From: Punica granatum
Lineage: Eukaryota > Streptophyta > Magnoliopsida > Myrtales > Lythraceae
Length of the DNA stretch: 64,000 nucleotides
NCBI RefSeq assembly: GCF_007655135.1
Contig: NC_045130.1
Span: 13,020,001 to 13,084,000 of the forward strand
Direction of reading: 5' to 3'
A model generated the notes under the pieces. The model did not search any database and was not told where the DNA came from. It saw nothing but the letters and a program-made list of their open reading frames with translations. The position numbers were made by a program, and so were the translations under genes. How positions within the stretch are numbered: position 1 is the first letter of the stretch; each line of letters begins with the position of its first letter. Shown piece after piece: positions 13,810 through 64,000 of the stretch.

Positions 13810-14340
13810 CATGCACCAGCGTATTTATTTTGGGTGTCGGGGGACTTTGAACACCCGACCCCTCGCTCAGATTCTGAGCCTCCAATTTTCTTAAATATTG
13901 TGCTATCACCGTCAAGTCCTGTCATCTTCTCACACTTAATTGCATATATTATATTTGTATATTGTTTATATATAGTTTAGGAAAGCACCAACTTTTGTAT
14001 ATATTTAGTTATTTTTCTTTTATCCCTAACCCATTATATAACACCATTAACTATTCTTATATTATTTATTATAATTTTAACATTCTATTATAAATTATAA
14101 ATTAATTTAGCAAACTCAGTAAATTGGAAACATGCTTAAAGAACAATCTATAACACATTATATAGAGAAAACTATCACCGTCATCCATCTGCTTTCACAT
14201 TGCCATCAATTTAGTCCATCTACTAATTTTGCCACCATTTTAATACAAACTTTTGCCTTCCGCTTATTAATATGGTCCTCGACGTTAGTGGACATAACAG
14301 AAGTTTGACGTGGGTGCATTGTTGGACCAAACGGGGTCAG

Positions 14341-15470: not shown

Positions 15471-15735
15471 GTCTACAATCAAGCTCCGGTTTGCTTAGAA
15501 ACGGTGTCGTTTTGAGCTTGGCACATGTTTCTGATTAAAAAACCAATTCATTGATGCCGTTTGGTCCAGCAATGCACCCACGTCAAACTTTCGTTATGTC
15601 CACTGACGTCGATGACCATATTGATAGGCTGAAGGCAAACGGTTCTGTTAAAATTGTGGCAAAATTAGTAGAGGGACTAAATTTGTGGCAGTGTGAAAGC
15701 AGACGGACGACAGTGATAGTTTTCTCCATTATATA

Positions 15736-39020: not shown

Positions 39021-39038
39021 TATGCTAAGTAGTACATT

Positions 39039-41943: not shown

Positions 41944-43617
41944 GGTACGATCTTGCGCTCGGATATCGGCTCGAGATACCCTTACTATGCTACTTCATTA
42001 TGGAGTAGAATTTCATAGTGGAATTAGGGTCCTCCTTTCCGATTACTATTGGGGTCAACGATGAAATATTATTAGCAGGTAGTGATTGAATCTAACGGTT
42101 TCAAGATAGCAAACTATAATTGTATATGTTATTCTTTGATGTTTTCTCCTTTTATCCTTTGAAGTTTGCCCGATGAATGAACCATTAATTTCCCTTCTTG
42201 TAATTTCTGAACGAGCATTTTACTTGTATCCTTTTTTGCCGTGGATTAATAAATGGATCCACTTGACAGCCTTAGCAAAAAAAAAAAAAAAACAAAACAA
42301 AAAATGGTTTACCGTTTTGGATACGAATTCATAGATGCATGAGAAGCCTCTCTTCCCCATTTATGTTGAGCATAAAACTCATAGATGAGGAACCTATTAT
42401 CTTTTATGCTTTGGGCTTCTTTTGTAATCAGAGGGTGTAATCTAGCCAAGTTGAGCTCTAGTATAGGCAAGCTCAACTTGACTCGAATCGGGAGTGTTGA
42501 GCTCAAGCTTGGTTGAACTTTGAAATCCCAGCTTGAGCCCGACTCGAAATGCAACCAAGCAATTTGAGCGCGGCTCGGTTAAGTTCGCTCTAGAATTCCA
42601 GTCCAATTTCCCATAAAAGATATAAAATATGGGCTTCAACCATTCATAAGAAGATTCATATGTAATTTTTACATGAGAACCTGGTTAAGCTCGTGAGCTA
42701 GACAAGTCAAGCACTACTAAGCTTGACCTTAGCTCACTCAAATAAAAAAGCTTGATTTGAGCTTGGCCTTGAGCTCGACAAGGCCGAGTCAGGTTTGAGT
42801 ATCATCAAATTGATCCCGAGTAGCTCACAAGTAGCTTGTCCTACTTACAACCCTACTCTTAGGCTTTGTTTGTTTCGGGAAAGATAATTTATAGGAAAGT
42901 GAATTACTCATTCTCCTACATTTGGTAACACAAAATCCTTTGGTCAACGGGAAAGCGTTTTCGGTCAAACTACAAAGTAAAGGTAACGGTACCCCTTTGT
43001 TTGGTTTTATAATTTATTTTTAATTCTACTCCACTTAACTTCATTTATCTTCAATTCAACAACACAATTATTACTTTTTCCTTTTTCTTCAATTTTTTAA
43101 CCATTAAATTTAATTTTTAATACTAAATTCTATCAATTATTCATTACTTTTTTTATATATTTTTTTATAATTCAATAACATAATCATTACAATTCAATTA
43201 ATTTATATATATATATATATATATATATTCAAAGTTAAAATAGAGTTGAGTTAACTCAACTCAAATGCTAAACAAAGAAATTCTCAAAATTCATTTTTTG
43301 GGCTACACTACTCTTTCTCTCTCTTACCTGGGGCCACCCGACGCATCTCTCCAAACACATACATATGATTTCCTTGATATCCTCCCAAACATAGAAAAAT
43401 AAATTATTTTCTCAAAAATTGCTTTTCATGTAAATAATTTTTCCTTGGAAAACAATTTACGTGAAATAAACAGAACCTAAGAGTGGTTGCTATCTATCAC
43501 AATATTGTTAGTGAAAATAATTTATTTGTTAATTATTTTTTCTTAATTATGTTAATATTTCAAATGCTTTTTCTTAAATGAAAGAGATCACGTTTATTTT
43601 TTTTTTATTTTTAATTT
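41944..43617. repeat. Tandem segmental duplication, copy A
   Basis: This segment and 43688-45203 share the same order of sequence throughout, including TTCATTATGGAGTAGAATTT, TCAAGATA-CAAACTA, GATGTTTTCTCCTT, the CTCGAGCTTGG-type inner repeat and CCTTGATATCCTCCCAAACA. The copies have diverged noticeably. Copy A alone contains a MITE at 42995-43277. The inner repeat (about 42431-42853) begins GGGTGTAATCTAGCC and ends ACTTACAACCC, like a hAT-type MITE. No genes. Confidence 0.85.
42995..43277 (-). mobile_element. MITE, 'TTTGGTTTTAGAGTTGA' family, copy 3 (absent from the sister duplicate)
   Basis: Ends CTTTGTTTGGTTTTATAA and GCTAAACAAAG are inverted. The interior matches copies 1, 2 and 4 and includes an AT microsatellite (about 43205-43230). 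In copy B of the tandem duplication the corresponding site (about 44838-44870) has no such insert, so it entered after the duplication or was lost from B. Confidence 0.75.
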
Positions 43618-43687
43618 GCTTATCGATACAACGTATGGCAGTGGACATCTTTAACTAAATACCTAGGTCAATTTTCATAGATGTATG

Positions 43688-45203
43688 GTAGGATCTTGCG
43701 CTTGGATACCGGGTTGAAATACCCTGACTACCCTACTTCATTATGGAGTAGAATTTCATAGTGGATTTAGGATGTCCTCCTTCCCAATTACTGTTGGGGT
43801 CCACGATGAAATATCGTTAGCATGTAGTGATCTGAGTTAACGGTTTCAAGATAACAAACTACAATTGTATCTATTATTCTTTGATGTTTTCTCCTTCTAT
43901 CCTTTGTAGTTTGCCCGATAGATAAACTGTTTATTTCAATTCTTGTAATTTCTGATCGGCATTTTACTTATATCCATTTTTTCCGTGGATTAATGAATGG
44001 ATCCACTTGACTACTGGAGCAAAAAAAGAAAAAGAAAAAGAGTATGCCTTTGGGATTTGGATATGAATTCATAGATGCATGAGAAGTCTCTCGTTCCCAT
44101 TTGTGTTGGGCATAAAACTCATAGATGAGGAACCTATTATCTTTTGGGTTTTTGTTTTTGTTTTGTTTTTTATTTTTTGTTTTTTTTTTCTGTAATCAAG
44201 GGGGTGTAATCTAGCCAAGTTGAGCTCGAGTATAGGCAAGCTCAACTTGACTTGAATAGAGAGTGTTGAGCTCGAGCTTGGTCGAGCTTTGAAATCCCAG
44301 CTTAAGCCTGACTCGAAATGCAATCGAGCAATTTGAGCATGGCTCGGTTAAGCTCGCTCTAGAATTCCATCCCAAATTTGCATAAAAGATATAAGTATGG
44401 GCTTCGGCCATTCATCAGAGGATTCATATATAATTTTTACATGAGAACTTGGTTAAGCTTGTGAGCTAGACGAGTCGAGCACTACTAAGCTTGAGCTCAG
44501 CTTGCTCAAATAAAAAGCTTGATTCGAGCTCGACAAGGCCGAGTCGGGTTTGAGTATCATCAATTCAATCCTGAATAGCTCACAAGTAGTTTGTCTTACT
44601 TACAAACTTGATTCGAGCTTGGTCTCGAGCTCGACAAGGCCAAGTCGGGTTTGAGTATCATCAATTCGATCCTGAATAGCTCACAAGTAGTTTGTCCTAC
44701 TTACAACCCAACTCTTAGGCTTCGTTTTTTTTGGGAAAGATAAGTTACAGGAAAGTGAATTACTCATTTTCCTACATTTGGTAACACAAAATCTTTTGGT
44801 CAACGGAAAAGCATTTTCGCCCAAACTACAAACTAAAGGCAAAAATGACGAAAATGAATTATGTAAAAATTTTCAAAATTCATTTTCTGGGCTGCACTGC
44901 TCTTTCTCTCTCTTACATGGGGCCACCCGACACATCTCTTCAAACATGCAGAGATAATTTCCTTGATATCCTCCCAAACATAGAAAAATGAATTATTTTT
45001 TCGAAAATTGCTTTTCATGTAAATCATTTTTTCTTGGAAAATAATTTACAGGAAATAAATAGAGCCTAAGAGTGGTTACTATCTATCACGATACTGTTAG
45101 TGAAAATAATTTATTTGTTAATTATTTTTTTCTTCATTATGTTAATATTTCAAATGCGTTTTCTTAAATGAAAAATATCACATTTAGTTTTTTATTTTTA
45201 AGA
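43688..45203. repeat. Tandem segmental duplication, copy B
   Basis: Sister of 41944-43617 without the MITE. Within it a unit of about 90-100 bp containing CTCGACAAGGCC-AGTCGGGT and TAGCTCACAAGTAGTTTGTC is itself duplicated (about 44517-44606 and 44607-44708), which copy A does not show. Non-coding. Confidence 0.85.
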
Positions 45204-48362: not shown

Positions 48363-48614
48363 AATCAGTATCAATATATATGTCACAACAAAACTTTCCA
48401 TGACAATCTTAGCTCCATATAAACTTATAAATCATTTCATCGAGATGACTAGAATATCCGCTCATCGAATTTTTTACTGGCTTTAGGATCAATTGATCAT
48501 GAACACTGGATTAGGTCCTGCAACCGCAAATAGTATGTTGTCGATCAGTACATAATCAACTAGTAAAGCAACAATCTTTGTTTTGATCGGGCAAAATTTC
48601 TAGCTAACGCCTAA

Positions 48615-49531
48615 TTAGGAAAAGAGAGTACCCGGACGCCCATCTCTATGGTAAGGACTTCCACCCACACCTCCTAGATCTACAATAACAATATAATTTG
48701 ACAATTTCAAATTTAGATAGTAATCCCAATCGAAAAAATATCATCAGTTAAGATGCATGGGCTAATCTGGAGAACAAAGCTTGAATACGTTCTAATGAAC
48801 TAACCAATATTCACGTACAAGACAAAACACTCGAACTTGATAGAATATAGATTGACATATCCATTATGTTTCTTGCCTTCCCGGATGAACAAAACCTACT
48901 TAAAAAAGAAAAATTTTGGGTCTACATATACGTGTGTGCCGTTTTGATCCAAATGTATTATTTATTTATGAATAACAATAGAGGAGTTTGATGGATGTAC
49001 GTTGAGACTGTTGAAAATCATTTGGGAGGAAACATCTATGTGACAAAAAATGGACCATAACATGTCTATTCAGCAACCTATATCATCTATATAAGATATA
49101 TAATTTGCAAGTATAAATTTATTGGAAAGAGGAAAAATAGTATACGTAACTGCGTTCGACTGCTTGGCCAGCTAAGGACGGAAAAGTTCCTTGTAGGTGC
49201 ACATCTTCTGCATGACATCGGTAGTACCCATTAAACGATAAATATTTAGTAGACATTAATGAAATTGAAAAGAATACTTAGGAGACTCCCATATGGCTTA
49301 TAATATCAAAATTATAACATATGTGCAAGAGAGAAGTCGAACAAAAATATATAATTCATCATTCAACCCAAAGAGGGTATATATATATATATCCATCACA
49401 AACAACCATGTTATATATAGTTCAAAGGTCGATACGATCTCCAAATGAGCACTGTCAATGATAACTGTTTATGGCCAAAAAGAGGGAGAAAAAGGAAAAA
49501 AAAAAAAAAAAACTGATCTGAAAATCTTAAG

Positions 49532-49572
<41 letters not shown>

Positions 49573-49723
49573 AGAGGGAGAGGGAAGCAGACTAACCGCC
49601 AGAGAGAAGACGGCTGGCGAAGGCCAGGGGAATGAGGCAGAGGAGAATGATTGTGAGAACGACGCCGATCCGAATAGGGATAAACGATGGAGTTGAAGTC
49701 GTAAATGCTGCAGCTTTCTTCAT
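48615..49723 (-). CDS. Putative secreted small peptide precursor, unit A (three exons, 82 aa)
   Basis: Exons 49723-49597, 49207-49151 and 48679-48615, joined in matching phases at GT-AG sites. Exon 1 encodes M-K-K-A-A-A-F-T and a hydrophobic helix (IGVVLTIILLCLIPLAFA) ending in a signal-peptidase-like A-F-A|S-R site. Exon 2 encodes GTFPSLAGQAVER, and exon 3 NLGGVGGSPYHRDGRPG and a stop. The same exon structure recurs in units B, C and D, so the model rests on comparison, not on one open frame. The tail after DG differs from B and C because of a small length change that shifts the frame. I do not recognise the family (it does not look like CLE, CEP, PSK, PSY, RGF, IDA, CIF or Pep). Probably enters the secretory pathway; role unknown. 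Confidence 0.58.
49534..49569. repeat. GA microsatellite in intron 1 of peptide gene A
   Basis: An uninterrupted AG/GA run only about 28 bases past the exon 1 donor (CT run on the coding strand). The sister copy B has a much shorter run at about 55278-55291. Confidence 0.9.
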
Positions 49724-49819
49724 TTTTATCCCTCTTCCGCAATACTCTCTCAGAGAGAGTCTCTCTGTGTGGACTAGCAGCCGATCTATTTGGCCTGTAC
49801 TTCACTTCAGTGCGGGTTA

Positions 49820-49841
49820 ATATATATATATATATATATTG
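49820..49841 (-). promoter_or_regulatory. AT-repeat TATA-like region upstream of peptide gene A
   Basis: A run of alternating TA about 100 bases upstream of the ATG at 49723, at the position expected for a TATA region. The equivalent run in unit B is at about 55556-55580. The length differs between copies, as usual for microsatellites. Confidence 0.4.
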
Positions 49842-50002
49842 TAAGCTAACTGTGATTTTGGTCAATGGTCTTAGATGGGGGAAAGCAGCATCATATCATG
49901 CTTGATACCGATGATTCAATGAATTTGGTTGTATGAAATTAATTAATTCAATATGTTTGAAAGCGGTTCACTTAGTTTGCGGCAAAAAAAAGTAGTGAGA
50001 AA

Positions 50003-50234
50003 GAGTTGTTTGATTTGCCAATCACGTTTAAAATCACAACTTTAACCTAATTTTACCAACAAAAAAATAAAATAACTCATTCAAAGTCAAATAGTGGGTT
50101 CCATTTATATTATTTTTTTTCACAACAAAATAAAATAACTTATATGAAGTCAAATGGTGAGTTCCATTTATACCACTTTTTTTTAAAATCAAAATCTAAT
50201 TTTAAAATTCTATTATAAAACTAAACGCAACATT
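50003..50234. mobile_element. MITE-like insertion upstream of peptide gene A
   Basis: Compared with the sister segment (B, around 55735-55760), which reads straight through from AGTAGTGAGA to TTCTTCACCAAGG, copy A has about 230 extra bases. The insert ends are weakly inverted (GTTGTTTGATTTGCC versus the complement GTTGCGTTTAGTTTT). It contains a 66-base internal tandem repeat (CAAAGTCAAATAGTGGGTTC and GAAGTCAAATGGTGAGTTC). Confidence 0.65.
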
Positions 50235-50629
50235 AAATTTCTTCACCAAGGCATCAATTTTCTTCGTGGAATAATCAGGAACGAGAGAAGTTGAGCCTTT
50301 TTCTGATTTTTAATTTGCATAGTCGTACAAGGAACGATTACCAGATCGAATTTCAGAACACCTTATAGATTGACCGCGTCAATGTTTGAAGACCGGAGAG
50401 GTGAGGCGGGAATTTGGTTTGGTCATCTATTAACTTAAATCGTATTTGACAAAGAAATATCCGTCGTAAACACAAGATTGAGGAGAAATGTTTTAAAAAA
50501 TTTACACGGGCAATATCCGATCACGTACATTTGATACATGAGAACGGAATAAAATAATTATATCTCATTATTTCACTTCATATAAATATAACTTTTATAT
50601 GAGTTTAAAAAAATATCTCATTATCTGAT

Positions 50630-51324
50630 CTACTAGGACTGTACTTTACTTCAACGCGTTTATATATGTACGTATATAGACACACAAGCTAGCTGTGATT
50701 TTGGTCAATGGTCAGAGCTGGAGGAAGACAACCTTATCATCAGGCTTAATTAATTAATACCAATGAGTCGATGGGTTGGTAAAATGCCTATGAGGTCTAT
50801 AAGCAGTTTGGATGGTAAATCCAATCCTCTTATGCATTCATGATTTTCTTTCAACATTTTGACGTGTAATACCAGCTTTCAATGCCATTTTGTGTTCGAG
50901 TCGCAATATTTGAAGAAAATATTAGATGTTATTAACAATTATACTCTGGTGTGTAACTCTCCGCAGCGCTCAGTGGCCAAGCGCATTGTCTTGTGGAATC
51001 TATAATACTTATTTCTTTTGTATTTCTTAATTTTTTATTTATTGGAACTAGCACATGCACCTTTACGTATTTGTATCACCTAATATGTTCTCATTCGATG
51101 GAGGTTTAAGTGACGGCTAAAATCTAAATAGTAATGAGAATGCTTATAATTCTTCACCATGGTTGCAATTCAATCTTCTTCTTGGAATCATCACGAAGGA
51201 GAAAAGTGAGGCTTCGTGCGATTTCCAATTTGCTTAAAGTACTAAGAGAATGGTATGACCATTGGAGCATAAATGAACAGAAATGAGTCGACCGTGCTAC
51301 AAATGAAACCATACCCAAGGGTGG

Positions 51325-51370
<46 letters not shown>

Positions 51371-51680
51371 GATCCATTCCTTGATATAACTTCTGATATT
51401 TCGGATATGGCTAAAAAGAAATCAAGGAAACAAAAGCATTATGGATGGATTGACAAATAACATAGTAAGATAGATCATAACAAACTAACAAGTATTCTTA
51501 ACTAAATGATTTTAAGCTCTAACATATCAGTTAAAGAAATCTCAAAATTAATAAATAAAAGAGATTTTAGCGCATGTAATCAAAAGGTTTCGGATTGTAT
51601 ATCAGTGAGACTTGTACCCTTTTATTAATTATTAAGATTTTTATTTCTAGAGAAATAGGAAGAGGCGTCAAACTGAAATT
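50630..51680. repeat. Second duplicated flank (sister of 63025-64000)
   Basis: Collinear with the DNA upstream of unit D: GGACTGTACTT, AGCTAGCTGTGATTTTGGT, AGGAAGACAACCTTAT, GAGTCGATGGGTTGGTAAAA, then a CT microsatellite (51328-51368) and GGGATCCATTCCTTGATATA. Here it follows directly on the A-type upstream region, with no exon 1 attached to it, so a unit appears to have been deleted at about 50605-50630. Confidence 0.8.
51328..51368. repeat. CT microsatellite
   Basis: About 20 CT repeats, shared with a shorter run at 63717-63747 in the sister segment. Confidence 0.9.
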
Positions 51681-51707
51681 TGTCGAATTGAAAAAATTAA
51701 GATTTTG

Positions 51708-52392
51708 TTTGGTTTTAGAGTTGAATTTTGATTTTAATTGATTTGTAATGATTTTGTTATTAAATTATGAGCATAATTGTTAGAATCATAATTCGAATCG
51801 TAGAATCATACAATTCTACGATTCTACATATGTCAAGCGATTCCAATTCAAGGGGATGAATCCAAATGCTGGAATTGGACTTGAATCGCGAGTTGAATCG
51901 CCGAATCGTAGAATCGGTACGATTCTACTATCAATGCCGGACTCGAGCCCGTTCATCACGTCCTGGAGGGCCCTGAGATCGCCGGCATTGCAGCCGAAGC
52001 TCTGCGAGTACAGAACCCTGAACTGGAAGCAGAGAGCTGCAACAACGATTATGAAGCACAAATTTTGAACACCTTTGTGAAGCAGAGCAGCTCGGAATCA
52101 AGAAACAGAGGGTCGACGGATGATGACACAGACAGTGTTAGAAGAACAAAACAAAAAACAAAAGAAAGAATCAAGTTTTGGGGAAGCCCATGTTGGGGAA
52201 GGGAGCTCCAGGGCTGGGCTTCAATGGCGGCTGGTTGCTGCCAACAAAGAGAGCAATAAAGCAGAGGATGCGGAGGGAAAAGAGAGAGAGAGAGAGAGAG
52301 GTGGGCTTTGGACTTCAGCACGTGCTTACGGCTATCTTTTATATATGTATAAGGTCTGAATATATTGAATTAATGAGAGATAGTCATGCGGC

Positions 52393-52432
<40 letters not shown>

Positions 52433-52690
52433 GTAGAATTTTACGATTTACGATCCGATTCTACGATTCACGATTTCACGGCTCTCGATTGATTTTAGGT
52501 AGAATCACAATTCTAACAACCTTGATTACGAGAAAAAAGTATGCAAAAATAATAAGTAGTTGAGAGAAAGTAATAATTATGTTGTTGAATTGTGGAAAAA
52601 AGTAATAAATAGTTGAGAGAATTTAGTATGAAAGATTGAATTAAATGATTAAAACTTTTTTAAAAAAATAATAATTATATTATTGAATTG
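51708..52690 (+). mobile_element. MITE, 'TTTGGTTTTAGAGTTGA' family, copy 4, split by a hAT element
   Basis: The left part (51708-51771) reads GTTTGGTTTTAGAGTTGAAT and ATTGATTTGTAATGATTTTG. The right part resumes at 52525 with a duplicated octamer and continues GTAATAAATAGTTGAGAGAA and TTTAGTATGAAAGATTGAAT, as in copy 2. The right end is not clear. Confidence 0.6.
51772..52524. mobile_element. hAT-type MITE, second copy of the ATTCTACGATT family
   Basis: Left end CATAATTGTTAGAATCATAA; the complement of the right end is CAAGGTTGTTAGAATTGTGA. Flanked by near-identical octamers ATTATGAG (51764-51771) and ATTACGAG (52525-52532). Subterminal TACGATTC-type motifs are shared with the copy at 12447-13239. 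The GC-richer interior (51930-52300) contains only chance frames, and an AT microsatellite lies at about 52395-52427. Confidence 0.82.
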
Positions 52691-54060
52691 ATGACATCTA
52701 TATTATTACATTCCTCGTAGCAATTTCTACGTAACTAGGGAAGATATTGAAAGGCGAATGATTACCTTCGGCGAACTGTTTCTCCTGATTTTGTGGAGCT
52801 CTATATATATTTTCTTTTTGTTCATTAGAATAAGATTTCGAGGATGTTAGATTTTGTTGGCGGTTACATCATCGACAATTCGCTTACCATTAGAAGAGTT
52901 AGAAGATATTACCCGATTTTCTCAATCCCTCCGCCATATCCTCACCCTACCCCCCGTCAGCCCTTAGCCATTCTCTTCCCTGACCGGTCAATCAACAAAG
53001 CATTGCCGGATTGATCGATTCTCCTCCTCCTCTGGTTACTGGTGGGGGCCGTTGGAGCCTGATTTCCATTTTTTCTCCTTCGATCAATCGTTCTTTGGTA
53101 TAGTTTCGTAATCAGGATAATTTGGTATGGATTTGTTCTTTCGATATAATTGACTAATTAATTACTCGAGTTTATCTTTTTCTTGGCACTATTTTCATAG
53201 GAGCTTTACATAGATGGCGATGTTCATGCGTAAGTTAATCTCACTCGGCACGATCACCAAAATCATGAACGGGACCCCATTCACCATGTCGTTCACTTTG
53301 ACGAGGATCAAATTGTGGCGGGATGGCAGCTTCAAGTCCACCGAGAGGATATATAATGAAGACATTCCTAGTGGCGGGATCATGCATGCTTGTCGTCATC
53401 ATATGCTGGCAGAACGTGAAGTTTCATTAGATCGTTTTTATTCTTCCGTGCTTTGTAAAGATTAGGGCTAAATCTCTAGATTTGAAATTGGCCTGTTCCC
53501 TAAGCTTGAGCTGTACAGATATATATTTGAATGTTGGCTAAAGTTGAGTGAGTGATGGTTCCCTTAATTTGAAGTGATGACTTCGATAAGACAATCTGGA
53601 ATAGGCTGAACTAAGAACAAATAGACTCACGAGCAATTACGTACGAGGCTTATCCTACGAAGCATCACTGTGACCTAGCGTCATTCGCTCCCTCTTCTCT
53701 GGTTACGATTAAACTGTATGGTTGAGAGAGTGAAAAACCGGTTTATTAAACCGTTTGATTGAGCTTCTCGTAAATCGATTTGCTTAACCGGTTTGGTTTA
53801 ATATTACACCTAGCGCAATAATAGGAATCTACGTTATCAATCTGGATTTGTGATGAGAGTGAAGACCGACGGAAAGAATTGTGGACAAAAATCACATTTA
53901 TATAACTAAGGGATCAAATTGTGATTTTTCAGGAGTATTTTTGAAATTTTAAAACCTATAAAAATAAACGGTCCAGATTAGATTGAGGGAAATTTAAAGG
54001 TCTAAATTAGTTATGTATGGTGTAAATAAATAAATAAAAATAAGCACTGAAAAAGCAGCC
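52691..54060. other. Intergenic DNA, uncertain coding-like patch at 53200-53465
   Basis: The plus strand is open from 53214 to 53465 (83 aa, MAMFMRKLISLGTITKIMNG at its start). Another frame across the same bases also looks protein-like but has a stop. Neither matches a family I know. A GC-richer stretch at 52910-53050 precedes it. I do not call a gene. Confidence 0.3.
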
Positions 54061-54285
54061 TCAGTATCAATATATATATGTCACAACCAAACTTTCCATG
54101 ACAATCTTAGCTCCATAAAAACTTATAAATCATTCATCGAGAATATCCGCTCATTGAATTTTTTACTGGCTCTAGGATCAATTGATCATGAACACTGGAT
54201 TAGTTCCTGCAACCGCAAGTTATATGTTGTCGATCAGTACATAATTAGCTATCAAAGCTAAAATCTTTGCTTTGATCAGGCATAA

Positions 54286-55437
54286 TTAACTATCAAAGCT
54301 AAAATATTTGTTTTGATCAGGCAAAATTTCTAGCAAACGCCTAATTAGGAAAAGAGAGTACCCGTGATGCGAGCCATCTCCACGGAAAGGACTTCCACCC
54401 ACGCCTCCTAGATCTACAATAACAATATAATTTGACAATTTCAAATTTATATAGTAATCCCCATAAAAAAAATCATTAATTAAAATTCATGGGCTAATCT
54501 GGAGAACAAAGCATGAATACGTTCTAATGAACTAACTAATATTCACGTACAAGACAAAAAACTCGAACTTGATAGAAAATAGATTGACATATCCATTATG
54601 TATCATGCCTTCCCGGATGAACAAAAACGACTTATAAAAGAAAATTTTTGGTACAGATATGTCCCCAAAATTTTGGTATACATATACATGTGTGCCGTTT
54701 TGATCCAAATGTATTATTTATTTATGAATAACAGTAGAGTTTGATGGATATACGTTGAGACTGTTGAAAATCATTTGGGAGGAAACATCTATGTGACAAA
54801 AAATGGACCATAACATGTCTATTCAGCAACCTATATCGTCTATATAAGATATATAATTTGCAAGTATAGATTTATTAGAAAGGGGAAGACTAGGAAGACT
54901 ATTATACGTAACTGCGTGCGACTGCTTGGCCAGCTAAGGACAGAAAAGTTCCTTGCAGGTGCACATCTTCTGCATGACATCGTTAGTACCCATCAAACGA
55001 TAAATACTCAGTAGACATTAATGAAATTGAAAAGAATAATTAGGAGACACCCACATGGCTTATAATATCAAAATTATAACATATGTGCAAGAGAGAAGTC
55101 AAACTAAACTATATAATCCATCATTCCACCCAAAGAATATATATATATATATATATATCCATCGCAAACAACCATGTCAATATATAGTTCAAGGTCGATA
55201 TGATCTCCAAATGAGCATTGTCAATCTTACCTGTTCATGGCCAAAAAGAAAAAAAGAAGAAGAAGAAGAAAATGATTGAGAGAGAGAGAGAGGGGGGAAA
55301 GCAGACTAACTGCCGGAGAGAAGACGGCTGGCAAAGGCCAGGGGAATGAGGTAGAGGAGAATGATTGTGAGAACTATGCCGATCCGAATAGGGATAAACG
55401 ATGGAGTTGATGCCGAAAATGCCGCAGCTTTCTTCAT
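54286..55437 (-). CDS. Putative secreted small peptide precursor, unit B (three exons, 103 aa)
   Basis: Exons 55437-55311, 54969-54913 and 54413-54286. Exon 1 encodes M-K-K-A-A-A-F-S, a hydrophobic helix (IGIVLTIILLYLIPLAFA) and SRLLSG. Exon 2 encodes K-D-V-H-L-Q-G-T-F-L-S-L-A-G-Q-A-V-A-R. Exon 3 encodes NLGGVGGSPFRGDGSHHGYS, then L-F and a further 20-odd residues to the stop. All splice sites are GT-AG and in the same positions as in unit A; phases 1 and 1. H-G-Y-S-L-F is shared with unit C, so B probably keeps the ancestral frame that A has lost. The extra C-terminal tail runs into the local tandem duplication and may be new. Function and family unknown. Confidence 0.6.
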
Positions 55438-55542
55438 TGTTATCCCTCTTCCGCAGTACTCTCTCTAATTCCTGTGTTATGACCGTAAGTGGACCAGCAG
55501 CCGATCTATTTGGCCTGTACTTCACTTCTGTGTGGTTAATAC

Positions 55543-55555
<13 letters not shown>

Positions 55556-55580
<25 letters not shown>
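55556..55580 (-). promoter_or_regulatory. AT-repeat TATA-like region upstream of peptide gene B
   Basis: Alternating TA run about 120 bases upstream of the ATG at 55437, next to an ATAC repeat. Equivalent in position to 49820-49841 of unit A. Confidence 0.35.
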
Positions 55581-55585
<5 letters not shown>

Positions 55586-56155
55586 GCTAGCTGTGGTTTT
55601 GGTCAATGGTCTTAGATGGGGGAAAGCAACATCATATCATGCTTGATACCAATGATTCAACGAGTTTAGCAGGATGAAATTAATTAATTAAATATGTTTG
55701 AAAGTGGTTCACTTAGTTGTGGCTAAAAAAAGTAGTGAGAATGCTTGGAATTCTTCACCAAGGCATCAATTTTCTTCGTGGAATAATCAGGAACGAGAAA
55801 AGTTGAGCCTTTTTCTGATTTTTAATTTGCATAGTCGTATGAGGAACGATTACCAGATCGAATTTCAGAATACCTTATAGATTGACAGAGTCAATGCTCG
55901 AAGACAGGAGAGGTAAGGTGGGAATTTGGTTTTTTGTTACTATTAACTTAAATCATATTTGACAAAGAAATATCCGTCGTAAACTCGAGTTGAGGAGAAA
56001 TGTTACCTACTCCACATTCATGAAAAACTTGGCTTGCATGTTTCAAAAATTTTACATGGGCAATATCCGATCATGTACATTTGGTACATGAGAATGGAAT
56101 AAAATAATTATATCCCATCATTTCACTTCATATAAATATCACTTTTATACGAGTT

Positions 56156-56997
56156 AAAAAAAAATTCCATTAGAATGACATTTTTTTAATTTGATTGAAT
56201 TTTAGTTTCCTTTAGAAAACATTTCTGATCATAGAGATTAGATTATCTTCAATTGGGATCTTAGAAAAGTTCACTTTTCCTTTGAATTTGCGGTAAGGAA
56301 ACTAACGCGCTTAATATTCAATTAACAAGACAATATTAGTTTGTAAGGCACCTTATCTTATACGAGATAACGAGACATGTATGAAAAAGTAAACTCGCTA
56401 TATTATTAACAAACTACATACGTTTGCATTAAGTTAATCTTAAGGGTTGAACATGCATATATGGCACATGCAAGTAAATTAATTTGTGCTTTCCCAAGTA
56501 AATTAGTTGACTTTATATTACCCACACCAACCCACCGGGGAAATTACTTACTTTTTACATGTAATTTACTTGAGTCATAAGTAAAATACTTAAAGTCTTT
56601 CAACATGTATGCACCATTCACCCAATTTAAGTATATCATAAAATACATTCGGCATTGATTTCACGGATCCCAAAATTCTAAAAACTAAGAGAAATTGGAA
56701 ACCCTTATTGACTTATGTTATTACCACATGATATACCCGTTATATATATGAGTTGCTCAAATGAAATGATCTTGGAAGAGTAGCTTAGTTACAACTCTTT
56801 TCCAATTTGCGACAAATTAAATCAAATTGTAAAGGAGAGTTATAGATCAATCTACTGAGCTGACTAGAAATTTGATCTTCGCAATCCGTTCATAACACAA
56901 TTCCTAACACAATTAATCAGTGCCTGCAAGCCAAAATCATATTGTTGTCTCAGTAAGTAGTTGATTCTTATCCCATAGCTAAAACCTATCAAATTTC
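56156..56997. other. Intergenic DNA between peptide units B and C
   Basis: AT-rich, with no coding frame recognised. From about 56740 it becomes similar, at lower identity, to the 3' flank of units A and B. Confidence 0.4.
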
Positions 56998-57900
56998 TTA
57001 CGTAAAGGCAAAGTTATTATAGCAAACGCCTTGAAAGGGAAAGAGAGAATACCCGTGATCTTGCCCAGCTTTCCCATCTTGATGGTACGGACTTCCGCCC
57101 ACACCTCCTAGATCTTCATGTAAATAATTGAATGCAGGTTAACATTTAGATATAAATCGAAATCAAGAAATTAAAAAAGGAAATTTCTGCACACATATTG
57201 CTTGGGCTAATTGATTTTTTGGAGGACAAAGATATTGAGATCTAATGAACTAATTAATCAACCTTCACCAAGACTAAAAACTGAACATGATTGACGCAAA
57301 TGTTACTGATGCTTGTTACTTATGCTTCAGCATTCGCGTAATATCGATCGTATACGTAGATACACCAAAATATCTATATAATTTATGCAACAAAAAGTGG
57401 AAAAGATAATGTAAAACAAAAAATGGACCATGACCAAGTCTATATATATATATATATATATATATGTACAACGTTTTTCATCTACGGAATATAATTGATG
57501 CATGGGTTATAAGAGAGGGGATTTAGTGTACTTAACTGCGTGCCACTGCTTGGCCAGCTAGAGACGGAAGAGTTCCATGCACATTCGCATCATCTGCAAA
57601 TTAAAACATCATTAATCTATGTCGATTTATAAATATTTTCTGCCAACAGAAACTGAAAAAGAGTACATGACATTGTAATTGATCATGAGCCTTCTAGCAA
57701 AACCTGCTGGATCCCAATTAACAACCCAGCCCGCATAGTTAATTCAAAGTACAATCTGATCCAAAGTTATATTTCTCCTCCCTATCGGCGAAATTTGATT
57801 TGACAGTTCAGACACAGAGAGATTGGGGAGGCAGACTAACCGCCGGAGAGAAAATGGACCAGCAAAGGCTGGTGGGAGGAGGCGCAGGCACAGGTAGAAC
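56998..57900 (-). pseudogene. Peptide gene unit C: exons 2 and 3 intact, exon 1 truncated
   Basis: Exon 3 is 57113-56998, reading NLGGVGGSPYHQDGKAGQDH, then G-Y-S-L-F and 15 more residues. Exon 2 is 57593-57537, with VHGTLPSLAGQAVAR. The exon 1 remnant (about 57895-57841) keeps only the region before the donor (P-A-F-A-G) and the same GTTAGT donor; its start codon and most of the signal helix are missing. At about 57895 the sequence switches to what is, in unit A, intron 1 DNA (AACGATAAATAT...). So C is a recombination product whose exons 2-3 could be used only if spliced to the exon 1 of unit D far upstream. Confidence 0.6.
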
Positions 57901-58010
57901 GATAAATATATAGAAGATATTCACGAAATCGAACAATGAGGAGGAGATAGATATCCGTAAAGCTTATGACAACTATAACATATGTGTATGAAAAAAGTCA
58001 AGCAAATTAA

Positions 58011-58661
58011 TGTTGGGTATCCTCTAATTTTGGAGGAAGTTGGGTTCAAATTGTATTATCGGACTTTAATAGGCCCAAGGACCCACTTTAGTTAGGGTTA
58101 ATTTTCAGCTAAATTAGATGGGTAAGAGGCAGCAGAATTTAGCAGCAAATCAGCACAGAATAACAGAGAAGAGCAGAGCAGAATTCGGATCAACAGGGGG
58201 CAGCGCGCAGCTGGAGATCAAACCTCGATCGGGACGTCAAACGAACTCCGATTGGGACGAAATTTTGACAGCAGCTTCACAACACGTGGGGCTAAATTCT
58301 GAACGGTCAAAATTTCTATTCGAGCTCTGTAAATGCTGTTTCAGCTGACTTTGTGAACCACCCGGTGTGAGTGACGAATTTAGTGTTTGGGTGATCCAAG
58401 AGAGTGTTTCTTTTGAGTTTTGTGATTCAAGGGTTTGCCCTTGATGAAAGACATTGTATAACCTTCATTCATAGTGGATTGTTGATTCGGAGTTGGTCTC
58501 GTGGTTTTTCCCCGCATCGGGATTTTCCACGTAAAATTCTTGGTGTTCTTTTACTTTACTGCTTGTTAGTTGATTTGATTAGTTCCTATCTCGATTACAC
58601 TAGTAGGAGAGGAAGATTAATTACTGCGTTATTATTTGGTTAAGTACATCCCTTCCCAACA
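58011..58661 (+). repeat. 5' LTR of the Copia element (651 bp)
   Basis: Starts TGTTGGGTATCC and ends CTTCCCAACA, i.e. TG...CA. It is directly followed by the primer-binding site after two bases. Confidence 0.85.
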
Positions 58662-58663
58662 AG

Positions 58664-58675
58664 TGGTATCAAAGC
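58664..58675 (+). promoter_or_regulatory. Copia primer-binding site (initiator tRNA-Met type)
   Basis: TGGTATCAAAGC differs at one base from the usual plant Copia TGGTATCAGAGC complementary to the initiator methionine tRNA. Confidence 0.85.
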
Positions 58676-58716
58676 CTCGGGTTAGAGAAGTTTGAGTTTT
58701 TTTCGGTGTTTTCGAG

Positions 58717-59961
58717 ATGGAGGAGTCTACAGGATCTATGTTTAAGTTGAATGCAACCAACTACTCTATATGGAAGTCTCGGATGGAGGATCTTCTATTT
58801 TGCAGGGATTTGTATGATCCCATTGAAGGGGATTCCGCAAAACCCAAAGATAAGGATGACAAGGCTTGGGAACGCACAAATCGAAAGACTATTGGTTTGA
58901 TTCGGCAGTGGATAGACAATAGTATTTATCATCATGTTGCTCAGGAGACAAATGCGAAAGCTTTGTGGGATAAATTGACAAATCTCTACGCGAGGAAGAC
59001 TCCGCAAAATAAGGCATTCCTCGTGAAGAAGCTGGTTCATTTTCGTTACCATGATGGAGGTGATATGGCTGTGCACATGAGTAATTTCCAGGATATTATT
59101 AACCAGTTGATGAACCCGGAGATAATATTACCCGATGAGTTGCAGGCTTGTCTACTTTTAGGGACTCTACCAGATAATTGGGACACACTTGTGGTTGCAT
59201 TAAGCAATTCTGCGCCAAACGGGAAGCTATCGTTGGCTACGGTGACAGACAGTTTATTTAATGAGGAGACTAGAAGAAAAGGCTCGGGGATTTCCATTCA
59301 GTCTGAAGCTTTGGTTACTGAACAACGGGGGAGAAGTCAAAGCAGAAATTTCTCTTCCAAGCATAGTAACTCACGTGGCAAATCGAGGGGTAGATCAAAG
59401 TCGAAGACGAGGAAAGTGGTCACTTGCTATCACTGTGGAAAAGAGGGACATTACAAAAGGGAGTGTAGAGCTTTGAAGAAAAATCAGAATGGCAACGGTG
59501 AGAGCAAGAAGGAAGAAGGCATTACAGCAGTGGCATCTGATGGAGAGACCTACATCGTTTGTGATGAAGTCTATGTGAATTTCACGTGTCAGGACTCTAC
59601 CTGGATTGCAGATACAGATGCCTCGTTTCATGTCACTCCTCATTGGGATTTCTTCTCATCTTACACTACCGGGGACTATGGTTATGTGAGAATGGGGAAT
59701 GGACAATCATGCAAAATTGTCGGTATTGGTGATGTCTGTCTACAGACCGAGCTTGGCTGCAAGTTGCTTCTAAAAAAGGTGAGGCATGTTCCAGAAATTC
59801 GCCTTAACCTAATCTCGACGGGTCAGCTTGATGATGAAGGCTACAGTAATGAATTTAGTAATGGGAGATGGAAGCTCTCCAAGGGTTCGTTGATTGTGGC
59901 ACGGGGTCAGAAGACCGACACTCTCTACAGGCTGCGTGCCAGGCACAATTCCGATTGCTGA
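58717..59961 (+). pseudogene. Copia Gag and protease region (414-aa open frame)
   Basis: The N-terminal half is a UBN2/DUF4219-type Gag (L-N-A-T-N-Y-S-I-W-K, A-L-W-D-K-L-T-N-L-Y). A basic Ser/Arg-rich stretch leads to a CCHC zinc knuckle CYHCGKEGHYKREC (about residue 237). The protease motif follows as W-I-A-D-T-D-A-S-F-H, with D-T-D in place of the usual D-T/S-G, which would be expected to damage the active site. The frame then ends at 59961 inside the integrase leader, where the continuing coding sequence is in another frame. A structural and processing module of a plant retroelement. Confidence 0.9.
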
Positions 59962-61100
59962 GGATTATCCTATCGAGCTATGGCACAGGAGACTTGGGCA
60001 TATCAGCGAGAAAGGTATTCAATTTCTTACTAGAAAGCAGTCTTTGCCCGTTAAAGGTATGACTTGAGCACTTGTGATCACTGTTTAGCTGGTAAGCAGA
60101 GGAGAGTTTCTTTTGTTAGAAGTCGTCCCTCTAGATGCGATCATATACTTGATCTTGTGCATACTGATGTTTATTTCATGTCGGATAGATCTCTTGGTGG
60201 CGCTCTCTAGTTTGTGACTTTATAGATGATCATTCCAAGAAGGTTTGGGCTTACCCTATGAGAACTAAAGATCAAGTGACTGAGATTTTCAAGAACTTCC
60301 ATGTAGCAGTGGAAAGAGAAACGGGCATGAAGCTGAAATGTGTCAGAGCTGATAATGGTGGTGAGTATAGGGGTCTTTTCGAGAACTATTGCAGGACTCA
60401 CGGTATCAAACTTGAGAAGATGGTACCGAAGACACCACAGCAGAACGGGCTTGCAGAGAGGATGAATCGCACAATTGTTGAGAGAGTTCGTTGTATGCTT
60501 TCTCAGGCGAAACTGTCTAAGTCTTTCTGGGGCGAGGCAATGAGGTCAGCGGTTGATCTTATTAATCTTACACCGTCAGTTACACTTGATGGCGATGTAC
60601 CCCAGCAGGTGTGGACCGGCAAGAAAATATCGTACAAGCATCTCAGAGTCTTCGGGTGCAGGGCATCTGTTCATATTCCTCGAGATGAAAGATCAAAACT
60701 CGATGCCAAGGCAAAACAGTGCATCTTCTTGGGTTATGCATATGAAGAGATCGAGTACAGGTTTTGGGACCCTGATAGCAAGAAGATCATAAGGAGCATG
60801 GATGTTGTGTTCTTTGAGGACCAAACAATCGAGGATTTGCAAAAGTTAGAGAAGGCCAAAGTAGGCAATCCTCACGAGATCTCTATTCCTGTATAGGTTG
60901 ATGTAGAGCATCCAATGGAAGAGTTACCTAGTGAGTATGAAGAAACCACGACTAGGGGTGAGATTCCTCAGGTAGATGATGATGTGACTACGGATGATAC
61001 AAGCTCGCAGTTATAGTTAGAGTCTGCAGATCTACCTAGACGATCTGATAGAATAAGACGACCATCTACAAAATATCCGCCTCATGAGTATGTGCTATTA
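59940..61100 (+). pseudogene. Copia integrase region, interrupted
   Basis: The N-terminal H-x4-H zinc-binding part (L-W-H-R-R-L-G-H) and its C-x2-C partner lie in different frames near 59978-60090. The catalytic core includes the second Asp in R-A-D-N-G-G-E-Y and the Glu in Q-Q-N-G-L-A-E-R. The main open part is 60258-60896; in-frame stops at 60894-60896 and 61014-61016 and shifts near 60065 and 60210 break it. Non-functional. Confidence 0.88.
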
Positions 61101-62670
61101 ACTGACGGGGGAGAACCTGAGTGCTATGGTGAAGTTGTGGCACATTATCACAAGGAGCACTGGTTGAAGGCGATGAATGAGGAGATGAACTCATTGTCTG
61201 AAAATCACACGTATGACTTAGTGAAGCTACTGCAAGGTAAGAGAGCATTGAAGAACAAATGGGTCTACAGGTTGAAGACAGAGAACTCGCGACCTCGATA
61301 CAAGGCTCGACTGGTAGTGAAAGGTTTCAACCAGAAGAAAGGAGTTGACTTCGAGGAGATCTTCTCGCCCGTTGTCAAGATTCATCGATCCGAGTTGTTC
61401 TCGCACTGGCAGCTAGTTTGAATTTGGAGATCGAGCAGCTCGATGTAAAAACAGCTTTCCTGCATGGTAACTTGGAGGAAGAAATATATATGAAGCAGCC
61501 TAAAGGATTCCAAGTTAAAGGTAAGGAGCATTTGGTGTGCAAGCTGAGGAAGAGCTTGTATGGACTTAAGCAAGCACCTCGGCAGTGGTACAAAAAGTTT
61601 GACTCTTTCATGTTGAGCCATGGCTACACACGGACAACTACAGATCATTGTGTGTTCGTGAAACAATTCTCGGATGGTGATTTTATCGTTTTACTTTTAT
61701 ATTGGATGATATGTTACTTGTTGGTCATGATATGAGCAAGATTGTAGAGTTGAAGAAAGAGCTCAGTAAGTCCTTTGCCATGAAGGATTTGGGACCTGCA
61801 AAGCAGATCCTTGGGATGCATATTTCTCGTAACAGATCAAGTGAAAAATTTTGGCTTTCTCAAGAGAAGTACATTGAGAAGATTTTGGATCGGTTCAACA
61901 TGGGTAATGCTAAACCAGTTTCATCACCACTTGCTTCTCATTTCAAACTTAGCTCGAAGCAATGTCCTACAAGTGAGAAGGAGAAAGAAGAGATGATGAA
62001 AGTCCCTTACTTATCAGCTGTAGGGAATTTGATGTATGCCATGGTCTGTACAAGACCAGATATCGCTCATTCTATTGGTGTGGTTAGTCGTTTTCTCTCT
62101 AATCCGGGGAAAGAGCATTGGAATGCAGTTAAGTGGATTCTGAGGTATCTCAGAGGAACATCCAAGGTGTGTTTACACTTTGGCACTGGTAAGCCGGAGT
62201 TAGTGGGCTACACGGATGCGAATATGGCAGGAGATATCGATTCCCGGAAATCCACTTCGGAATACTTGATGACTTTTGCAGGGGGAGCTATCTCATGGCA
62301 ATCAACGCTTCAAAAGTGCATCGCTTTGTCTACAATGGAAGCCGAATACATTGTGGTGATCGAAGGTTGCAAGGAGATGTTGTGGTTGCAAAAGTTTTTG
62401 CAGAAGTTGAGCTTGAAGCAAGAAAGGTATGTTCTACACTGTGATAGTCAAAGCGCCATTCATCTTTGCAAGAATCCCACTTTCCATTCGAGATCGAAGC
62501 ATATCAATATCAAGTTTCATTGGATTAGAGATGTGTTGGAGTCCAAGCTGGTGAAACTAGACAAAGTGCACACTGATGAGAATGGAGCTGATATGATGAC
62601 AAAACCTCTCGCTAGGGAGAAACTTCATGTTTGCCGAAGTATAACCGGTATGCTCGAAACCTCCAAATAG
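61101..62670 (+). pseudogene. Copia reverse transcriptase and RNase H region, interrupted
   Basis: RT begins W-L-K-A-M-N-E-E-M and has K-A-R-L-V-V-K-G-F and Q-L-D-V-K-T-A-F-L-H-G. The frame shifts near 61390 and again near 61705, where the Y-V-D-D catalytic box is spoiled by a lost base (one frame reads Y-W-M, the other L-D-D-M). The rest is one 322-aa frame with L-G-M-H-I-S, T-R-P-D-I-A, G-Y-T-D-A-N and the Copia RNase H tail (C-D-S-Q-S-A-I-H-L, S-K-H-I-N-I-K-F-H). It ends just before the polypurine tract. Confidence 0.9.
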
Positions 62671-62671
62671 T

Positions 62672-62685
62672 CGGGAGGGGGAGTT
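62672..62685 (+). promoter_or_regulatory. Copia polypurine tract
   Basis: CGGGAGGGGGAGTT immediately precedes the TGTTGGG start of the 3' LTR remnant, the normal plus-strand primer position. Confidence 0.8.
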
Positions 62686-62723
62686 TGTTGGGTATCCCTC
62701 CAATTTTGGAGGGATACCCAACA
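62686..62723. repeat. 3' LTR reduced to a 38-bp perfect hairpin
   Basis: TGTTGGGTATCCCTCCAA, then TT, then the exact reverse complement of the first 18 bases. Its first 28 bases correspond to the start of the 5' LTR and its last 7 to the LTR end (CCCAACA); about 610 bases in between are absent, although the target duplication is intact. Confidence 0.85.
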
Positions 62724-62839
62724 ATTAAGACACTACAGCAACCCAACAACCCCTTTTTATAGTTAAACGGTCGATCTGATCTCCCCCTTCCCAATTTGCA
62801 AATTTCAAGCTTAGAGAAAAAGAGAAGTGGATGACTAAC

Positions 62840-62972
62840 CACTGGAGGAGAGAAAACGGCCGGCGAAGGCCAGTGGTAGGAGGTAGAGGAGAATGACTAT
62901 GAGAGCCACAGAGATTCGAATAGCCATAAACGATGGACTTGAAGATACCGTAAATGCTGCAGCTTTCTTCAA
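62840..62972 (-). pseudogene. Peptide gene unit D: exon 1 with altered start codon
   Basis: The aligned exon reads (TTG) K-K-A-A-A-F-T-V-S-S-S-P-S-F-M-A-I-R, a hydrophobic helix (VALIVILLYLLPLAFA) and G-R-F-L-S-S-S, ending at the same GTTAGT donor as A-C. The position of the initiator ATG in A and B is TTG here (62970-62972). A later in-frame ATG at 62925-62927 could still start a protein with the signal helix. Downstream, in intron 1, sits the Copia element at 58011-62723. The next usable exons would be those of unit C at 57593 and 57113, about 5.2 kb away. Confidence 0.6.
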
Positions 62973-63024: not shown

Positions 63025-63712
63025 CAGCTGATCTACTTGGACTGTACTTAAACGTGGTTATATTTATATATATGCATATATAGATATATGTTCATACACA
63101 CACAAGCTAGCTGTGATTTTGGTTAATGGTCAGAGTTGGAGGAAGACAACCTTATTATCAGGCTTAATTAATTAATAACAATGAGTCGATGGGTTGGTAA
63201 AATGCCTATTAGGTCTATAATGGATGGTAAATCCAATCCTATGATTTTGTTTCAACTTTTCGACATGTAATACCAGCTTTCAATGCCATTTTGTGTTCAA
63301 TTTGCAATATTTGAAGAAAATATTAGATGATATCAACACATATACTGTGGTGTGCAACTCTCCACAACGCTTAGTGTCCAGAATACATTATCTTGTGAAG
63401 TTTACAGCACTTATTTCTTTTATATTTTTTTTGATTTTTTATTGGAATAGGCACATACACCTTTACATGTTTATATCACTTAATATTTTCTCATTCGAAG
63501 GAGGTTCAAGTGATGGCTAAAATATAAAAAGTAATGAGAATGCTTATAATTCTTCACCATGGTTGCAAGTCAATTTTCTTCGTGGAATCATCACGAAGGA
63601 GAAAAGTGAGGCTTCCTGCGATTTCCAATTTGCATAAAGCACTGAGAGAATGGTATGACCATTGGAGCATAAATGAACAGAAATGAGTCGACCGTACTGT
63701 AACCCAAGGGGG

Positions 63713-63749
<37 letters not shown>

Positions 63750-64000
63750 GATCCATTCCTTGATATAACTTCTGATACATCGGATCTGGCTAAAAAGAAA
63801 TCAAGGAAACGAAAGCATTATGGATGCATTGACAAATAACATAGTAAGATAGGTCATAACAAACTAACAAGTATTCTAAACTAAATGATTAAAGAAATCT
63901 CAAAATGAATAAATAAAAGAGAGTGTAGCGGGCAGTGCACGCTTTTATTAGTAATCAAGAGATTTTAGGTTAGATATTAGTGAAACTTGTACCTCTTTTT
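63025..64000. repeat. Upstream flank of unit D (sister of 50630-51680), continuing past the window
   Basis: Collinear with 50630-51680, including the CT microsatellite (63717-63747) and GGGATCCATTCCTTGATATA. A TATATA stretch at about 63061-63090 sits where a promoter for unit D would be. No other gene is visible up to the window edge. Confidence 0.8.
63717..63747. repeat. CT microsatellite
   Basis: About 15 CT repeats; the sister run at 51328-51368 is longer. Confidence 0.9.

What the first reader, a model, noticed from the sequence alone, without database searches (positions are those of the whole stretch)
48615..62972. Tandem array of an unrecognised three-exon secreted-peptide gene family
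Four units on the minus strand share an exon plan: a signal-helix exon with M-K-K-A-A-A-F, a short SLAGQAV exon, and a last exon with NLGGVGGSP followed by Y/F-x-x-D-G and H-G-Y-S-L-F. Exon lengths (127 and 57 nt) and phases are kept in A and B; exon 2 length is also kept in C. I cannot match the mature segment to a named plant peptide hormone or phytocytokine family. Each exon is too short to be found as a single-frame gene, so such genes are easily missed.
Basis: partly seen in the sequence, partly recalled or inferred. Interest (0 to 1): 0.82.

Follow-up and report, generated by a model that had tools for sequence, protein, structure and literature searches.

The report
Pomegranate array of secreted-peptide genes
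A stretch of one pomegranate chromosome carries a row of duplicated small genes that appear to encode a family of secreted peptides, with a relative so far found in water chestnut; their function is untested.

Summary
The finding is largely right. The window is pomegranate (matching proteins are named Punica granatum; place in a held 320-Mb genome). The genes are spliced: unit B equals, letter for letter, the public 'hypothetical protein' CDL15_Pgr028795.

Corrections: (1) Three units, not four: C and D are one gene split by a Copia element in intron 1. (2) H-G-Y-S-L-F is intron-3 read-through; 10 of 14 family copies stop before it. (3) The array is larger: 16 signal-exon copies in about 217 kb; the only other match in the genome was weak (E 0.13). 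Fourteen units have recognisable exons 1-3; 12 give open spliced frames.

Products are 66-86 aa: signal-type N-terminus, variable spacer, conserved end (LGxVGxxPxxxDG in 11 of 12). Pooled dN/dS over 11 units is about 0.5, 1.1 and 0.4 for these parts. The only relatives found outside pomegranate are a Trapa protein and one unnamed-source frame; no Pfam family matched.

Best reading: a family of secreted, signalling-type peptides evolving by tandem birth and death. Coding and secretion are well supported; signalling is inferred; no expression data were available.

The parts
49597..49723 (-). Unit A exon 1 (127 nt): signal-type N-terminus MKKAAAF...LAFASRLLSG
   Evidence: donor GGCG|GTTAGT
49151..49207 (-). 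Unit A exon 2 (57 nt): spacer + SLAGQAVER
   Evidence: acceptor ATGCAG, donor CGCA|GTTACG
48632..48679 (-). Unit A exon 3 (48 nt): NLGGVGGSPYHRDGRP; net 4-nt gap against B
48489..48517 (-). Unit A exon 4, coding part up to TGA, giving the tail GPNPVFMIN
   Evidence: TTGCAG acceptor also in B and C
55311..55437 (-). Unit B exon 1 (127 nt)
   Evidence: spliced product identical to P0001 = CDL15_Pgr028795
54913..54969 (-). Unit B exon 2 (57 nt)
54362..54413 (-). Unit B exon 3 (52 nt), ends CATCACGG|GTACTC
   Evidence: public protein ends HHGN by splicing here
54200..54206 (-). Unit B exon 4, coding part (G AAC TAA)
62840..62972 (-). Unit D/C exon 1 (133 nt); first codon TTG instead of ATG, in-frame ATG at 62927 just before the hydrophobic core
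   Evidence: the public product of paralogue U4 (P0002) starts at the equivalent ATG
58011..62723 (+). Copia LTR retrotransposon in intron 1 of D/C; flanking duplication ATTAA at 58006-58010 and 62724-62728
   Evidence: ends, duplication, primer-binding site; copia gag and Pol domains; element-free paralogue U4
57841..57893 (-). Relic of an exon-1 tail inside intron 1 of D/C, also present in U4 (approximate limits)
57537..57593 (-). Unit D/C exon 2 (57 nt)
57053..57113 (-). Unit D/C exon 3 (61 nt): NLGGVGGSPYHQDGKAGQDHG
56917..56923 (-). Unit D/C exon 4, coding part (G CAC TGA); predicted only
50661..51511 (-). 5'-flank of a D/C-type unit (87% identical to 63079-63890, upstream of D) with no gene body

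Best explanation
A family of short secreted-peptide precursors, found so far in Punica and Trapa (both Lythraceae; family placement recalled). Each gene has three coding exons; a further intron lies at the very end of the frame (A, B, D/C) or, by the same GTACTC site, after the stop codon. Exon 1 gives a signal-type N-terminus. Exon 2 gives a fast-changing spacer and SLAGQAVAR. Exon 3 gives the conserved Cys-free end NLGxVGxxPxxxDG, usually with one or more His after it. Most likely the propeptide is secreted, cut near AVAR|N, and the end acts in the apoplast as a ligand or phytocytokine-like signal. Shown by computation: gene structure, coding constraint, signal-type N-terminus, conserved end, tandem turnover with recombination. 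Inferred: cleavage sites, modification, receptor and signalling role.
For: Letter-for-letter match of three models to public proteins: B = P0001, U6 = P0003, U4 from Met16 = P0002. Fourteen units with recognisable exons 1-3, 12 with open spliced frames. In seven distant pairs of five units compared, exons stay 69-88% identical with gaps totalling multiples of 3, while intron 2 is near shuffled level. dN/dS pooled over 55 pairs of 11 units: 0.52 signal, 1.10 spacer, 0.40 end; five-unit subset end 0.34, bootstrap 0.15-0.67, 0 of 500 at or above 1. One hydrophobic 15-mer (mean 2.76-3.05) at the N-terminus and at most 0.91 afterwards, in 6 of 6 products tested, Trapa included. No Cys after the signal in 11 of 11. 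Trapa relative with SLTGQAVARSLGxxGGS, E 4.2e-8 with a query that did not contain it.
Against: No transcript, peptide or receptor evidence; the public entries are named hypothetical. The end motif is loose for a ligand: U7 reads NLVQVGGGYRQDGGGHAG, A has a shifted tail, Trapa diverges. Several copies are dead or partial; D/C and U4 have TTG in place of the first ATG; U10 has AA in place of the usual AG before exon 2, with an in-frame AG 3 nt on. U12 and U16 read AFTS at the expected cut, less typical than AFA or ASA. No dedicated signal-peptide predictor was run. In one subfamily synonymous exon divergence exceeds intron divergence, so dN/dS is not a clean measure.
Confidence: 0.55

Rival explanations
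1. Directly acting secreted defence peptides (antimicrobial, His/Gly-rich or metal-binding) rather than receptor ligands.
For: Tandem array with turnover; Gly-rich and in part His-rich ends (DGHHHP, DGGHHPHH); divergence of exons 1 and 3 between lineages would suit an arms race.
Against: Net charge without His is -1 to +2 and there is no Cys after the signal in 11 of 11, unlike most plant antimicrobial peptides (recalled). The most constrained mature part is a short terminal motif, as in ligand precursors.
Confidence: 0.2
2. Mostly a decaying, unexpressed repeat family whose frames are left over from duplication.
For: Broken or partial copies (U5, U9, fragments), TTG start in D/C and U4, lost acceptor AG in U10; a Copia insertion in D/C and retrotransposon-like frames by eye between units. 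No expression evidence.
Against: 12 of 14 three-exon units open; distant subfamilies keep frames and motif while intron 2 randomises; dN/dS below 1 with bootstrap support; relative in Trapa.
Confidence: 0.12
3. Small membrane microproteins: the N-terminal helix is a signal anchor, not a cleaved signal peptide.
For: About 18 residues precede the hydrophobic core in A/B-type products, long for a signal peptide.
Against: D/C and U4 can start at an internal Met right before the core, and the public U4 product does; small residues at -3/-1 in most units (AFA, ASA, FGA), less so in U12/U16. No predictor was run.
Confidence: 0.12
4. Strongly diverged members of the IDA/PIP/CEP ligand families.
For: Same precursor plan, Arg after the signal in most units, Gly/Pro/His-containing end (compare PMC4526919, passages).
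Against: S[GAV]PS 0 of 11, GxGH at the C-end 0 of 11 (internal in U12 and U16), SPG[IV]GH 0 of 11. [quoted passage not shown] these have coding introns.
Confidence: 0.08

Closest known systems
Punica granatum hypothetical proteins CDL15_Pgr028795, 028796, 028798
   Same: They equal units B, U4 (from Met16) and U6 of this array, letter for letter
   Different: Listed singly, without family, function or array context
Trapa incisa hypothetical protein SAY87_000408 (P0005)
   Same: MKKA start, RFLS, SLTGQAVARSLG, GGS; E 4.2e-8. Lower E-values are circular, as the queries contained it
   Different: Shorter, lacks part of the signal exon and spacer; end diverged (RRDDGNDGGGDRG)
[quoted passage not shown]
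   Same: Small precursor, signal peptide, Arg after it, variable region, conserved short C-terminal motif
   Different: SGPS and C-terminal GxGH absent; coding introns present
CEP peptides (PMC4526919, passages seen)
   Same: Gly/Pro/His-containing C-terminal end
   Different: SPG(I/V)GH absent in 11 of 11

Membership tests
[quoted passage not shown]
   0 of 11 products; definition from PMC4526919 passages
PIP/PIPL and CEP | GxGH at the extreme C-terminus | tested here: not met
   0 of 11 at the end; internal GxGH in 2 of 11, U12 and U16
[quoted passage not shown]
   Introns inside the frame; the spliced product of B equals P0001
Small secreted, Cys-poor peptide precursors, as a broad class | N-terminal signal peptide | tested here: inconclusive
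   Hydropathy fits in 6 of 6 products tested and -3/-1 residues fit in most units by eye; no dedicated predictor was available
Small secreted, Cys-poor peptide precursors, as a broad class | Variable middle and conserved short C-terminal motif, few or no Cys | tested here: met
   dN/dS 1.10 spacer against 0.40 end; LGxVGxxPxxxDG and no Cys after the signal in 11 of 11; U7, found later, lacks the motif
Small secreted, Cys-poor peptide precursors, as a broad class | Processed, modified peptide perceived by a receptor | not testable with these tools
   No transcript, peptide or receptor data
Sulfated-peptide families (RGF, PSY, CIF; features recalled) | Asp-Tyr sulfation motif | tested here: not met
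   DY in 0 of 11
Any Pfam-A family | Match to a curated model | tested here: not met
   None of 3 rows scanned (A, B, D/C) had an acceptable match; one row at E 0.081 to Glam1. The other units were not scanned

The most novel reading that the evidence does not exclude
A lineage-specific peptide-hormone family under diversification: gene conversion or crossing-over keeps introns, exon 2 and near flanks of neighbouring copies alike, while the signal exon and the mature-peptide exon are kept different, giving one plant a set of distinct ligands from one array. Between the lineages U6/U10, U12/U16 and U5, exons 1+3 differ by 13.1-20.6% while non-coding DNA differs by 5.5-6.6% (six pairs).
Probability: 0.25. 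Interest if true: 0.68.

Novelty: new member of a known kind. Interest (0 to 1): 0.47.

Why it matters
Plant peptide ligands are commonly found by similarity to known motifs (recalled), so families confined to one plant lineage, with tiny exons, can stay as scattered hypothetical proteins. This array offers complete gene models, a conserved end to synthesise, a variable spacer, many paralogues and a relative in Trapa. If the exon-against-intron pattern holds up, it is also a natural test of how a tandem array keeps several peptide variants apart while the rest of the repeat is homogenised.

Tried and rejected
Four separate units: rejected (Copia element with flanking duplication, element-free paralogue U4). 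HGYSLF as mature motif: rejected. IDA/PIP/CEP membership: tested by motif, not met. Resemblance of A's tail GRPGPNP to CLE or Pep endings: noticed from memory, not tested, not used. A receptor gene duplicated along with the peptides: none recognised by eye in the first 70 residues of 44 long ORFs. The nine ORFs sent to Pfam all lie in the window, two inside the Copia element and seven left of the array; five of the nine had no family; long ORFs elsewhere in the array were not sent. Structure prediction was not run. Solved structures (two weak matches, best E 0.22) and plasmids (none) gave nothing useful. Literature: searches listed no paper on this family; others listed one unrelated paper each; this covers only the held open-access library. 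Searches were for background.

Counts dropped: the dN/dS pool has 11 units; U5 and U9 were left out as broken and U7 was recognised only later. The five-unit subset was my choice. U9 is out of frame with its usual donor but open with another GT. The exon/intron test uses six pairs from three lineages, so its p-values (6.3e-4 to 1.5e-9 for exons 1+3) are not independent, and U5 is a broken unit; at G/C sites alone the excess is weaker (p 0.0047 to 0.56, below 0.05 in 3 of 6 pairs). The pattern does not hold everywhere: within the lineage pair U12/U16 exons differ less than introns, and A-B are mixed (exon 1 7.9% against intron 1 12.8%; exon 3 16.7% against intron 3 9.6%).
Full report
What the window is. 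The window lies at G000:C4:13020001-13084000 of a held genome of 320,430,517 bases in 474 contigs. Three database proteins from this array are named Punica granatum. The size fits the 'Tunisia' pomegranate assembly (320.31 Mb, 473 scaffolds; PMC7061868, passages seen). The database proteins carry CDL15 tags, which I recall as the 'Dabenzi' cultivar; if so, the same genes are present in two cultivars.

The observation. The motifs are on the minus strand at the stated places. Units A and B share exons of 127 and 57 nt in the same phase; C shares the 57-nt exon. In B it ends CATCACGG|GTACTC and is spliced to a fourth exon whose first codons end the protein (...DGSHHGN), giving 80 residues identical to P0001, CDL15_Pgr028795. 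Of 14 copies with an exon 3, 10 (U4, U5, U6, U7, U10, U11, U12, U13, U16, U17) have a stop codon before the GTACTC site and 4 (A, B, D/C, U9) do not. H-G-Y-S-L-F is therefore the translated start of intron 3. Unit A has a net 4-nt gap against B in exon 3; spliced, it would end GRPGPNPVFMIN.

Three units, not four. D has exon 1 only; C has an exon-1 relic and exons 2-4. Between them, 58011-62723, is a Copia element on the plus strand, with a primer-binding site and the 5-bp duplication ATTAA on both sides. Two of its frames carry copia gag, Pol_BBD and retroviral SH3-like domains above cut-off; the integrase core scores just below its cut-off (30.5 against 32.6). Paralogue U4 carries the same intron, exon-1 relic included, without the element: 628 of 669 aligned bases identical, 112 gap columns. 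D and C are thus one gene with a 5.2-kb intron. Its first codon is TTG, as in U4; the public product of U4 (P0002) starts at Met16, just before the hydrophobic core, and D/C has that ATG too (62927).

The array. A 268-bp probe found 16 places and an exon-1 probe 17, of which 16 lie on C4 between 13.069 and 13.286 Mb on one strand and one, weak (E 0.13), on C1. A second exon-1 probe found the same 16 places and no other. The tool scores only best candidates, and a genome-wide exon-3 search did not complete. I fetched 13.084-13.284 Mb and two small pieces beyond. Fourteen units have recognisable exons 1, 2 and 3. Twelve give an open spliced frame: A, B, D/C, U4, U6, U7, U10, U11, U12, U13, U16, U17. 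Of these, D/C and U4 have TTG in place of the first ATG, and U10 has lost the usual AG before exon 2, with an in-frame AG 3 nt on. Two are broken or doubtful: U5 (truncated exon 2, exon-3 acceptor lost) and U9 (1-nt deletion in exon 1; open only with another donor). The rest are partial: exon 1 with a decayed exon 2 (13240462); a partial exon 1 with no further exon matched in the 4 kb held (13286204); exon 2 without exon 1 (13152326, 13231495); an exon-2 relic (13317924). U17 joins B-like exons 1-2 to a U13-like exon 3, the switch lying inside intron 2; U7 has the same make-up. A 5'-flank of a D/C-type unit without gene body lies at 50661-51511.

The product. Precursors are 66-86 residues (D/C and U4 counted from the internal Met). 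In 6 of 6 tested (five array products and the Trapa protein) one strongly hydrophobic stretch (15-residue mean 2.76-3.05) lies at the N-terminus and nothing above 0.91 follows. The likely cut has small residues at -3 and -1 in most units (AFA, ASA, FGA) but reads AFTS in U12 and U16. In 11 of 11 products tested the part after the signal has no Cys and carries both G-x-A-V-x-[RH]-N and LGxVGxxPxxxDG. U7, found later, keeps AVARN but not the second motif.

Selection. A-B dN/dS is 0.44, A-D/C 0.55, B-D/C 0.59, with dN>=dS in 88, 70 and 117 of 2000 codon bootstraps. Pooled over 55 pairs of 11 units the ratio is 0.52 for the signal, 1.10 for the spacer and 0.40 for SLAGQ...DG; for five units the last is 0.34 (bootstrap 0.15-0.67, 0 of 500 at or above 1). 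Among five units compared for exon and intron identity (10 pairs), the seven distant pairs keep exons at 69-88%; their intron 2 is near shuffled level (0.46-0.51 against 0.45-0.47) and intron 1 somewhat above it (0.43-0.66 against 0.44-0.51). The other three pairs are closer: intron 2 at 83-85% in U4-U6 and U4-U12, both introns at 92-96% in U6-U12. This is what a secreted precursor with a functional end and a free spacer would show.

An unexpected pattern. Among U5, U6, U10, U12 and U16, exons 1 and 3 differ more between lineages than the DNA around them: 13.1-20.6% against 5.5-6.6% in six pairs from three lineages (Fisher p 6.3e-4 to 1.5e-9), while exon 2 does not differ significantly from non-coding DNA in any of the six. 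In the four pairs without U5, dS of exons 1+3 is 0.24-0.33 and dN 0.10-0.13; intron divergence, computed for U10-U12, is 0.072. That points to homogenisation of introns and exon 2 by conversion or crossing-over while exons 1 and 3 stayed apart. Against it: the pairs are not independent; U5 is a broken unit; at G/C sites alone p is 0.0047 to 0.56 (below 0.05 in 3 of 6); within U12/U16 the exons differ less than the introns; and A-B are mixed. I treat it as a lead.

Relatives. Three profile searches of about 5.8 billion proteins, the second and third scoring only the roughly 8,000 candidates sharing most words, found the three pomegranate proteins, Trapa incisa SAY87_000408 and a 52-residue frame from an unnamed assembly (P0004); one further row at E 9.8 is noise. 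The independent E-value for Trapa is 4.2e-8; the lower ones come from queries that contained it. P0004 scored 3.4e-9 and 1.1e-10 with queries that did not contain it. Pfam gave nothing acceptable for the three rows scanned. Because such short spliced genes are often unannotated, absence elsewhere is weak evidence.

Reading. Coding and entry into the secretory pathway are well supported by computation; a ligand-type role is the most likely but inferred reading, with direct defence peptides the main rival. The family fails the defining motifs of IDA, PIP and CEP peptides tested here. It is a new family of a known kind, met in the databases searched only as scattered hypothetical proteins.

Noticed in passing
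C4:13101569-13266239 (L010-L027), units U5, U6, U10, U12, U16: Exons 1 and 3 differ about two to five times more than the surrounding non-coding DNA between lineages of one subfamily, at synonymous sites too; not so within U12/U16.
   Followed up: partly
C4:13276836-13275255 (L028) and 13146023-13143837 (L014/L015): Two units (U17, U7) look like recombinants: A/B-type exons 1-2 with a U13-type exon 3.
   Followed up: partly
window 41940-45198: A tandem duplication of about 1.5 kb, pieces 85-90% identical, outside the peptide genes.
   Followed up: no
window 39470-40183: A 0.7-kb sequence that aligns to its own reverse complement at 70%, beside reverse-transcriptase frames at 37306-39024.
   Followed up: no
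window 14159-14334 and 15557-15733: A 177-bp inverted repeat, 88% identical.
   Followed up: no
window 62686-62723: The 3' LTR of the Copia element seems reduced to 38 bp while the 5' LTR is about 650 bp, read by eye.
   Followed up: no
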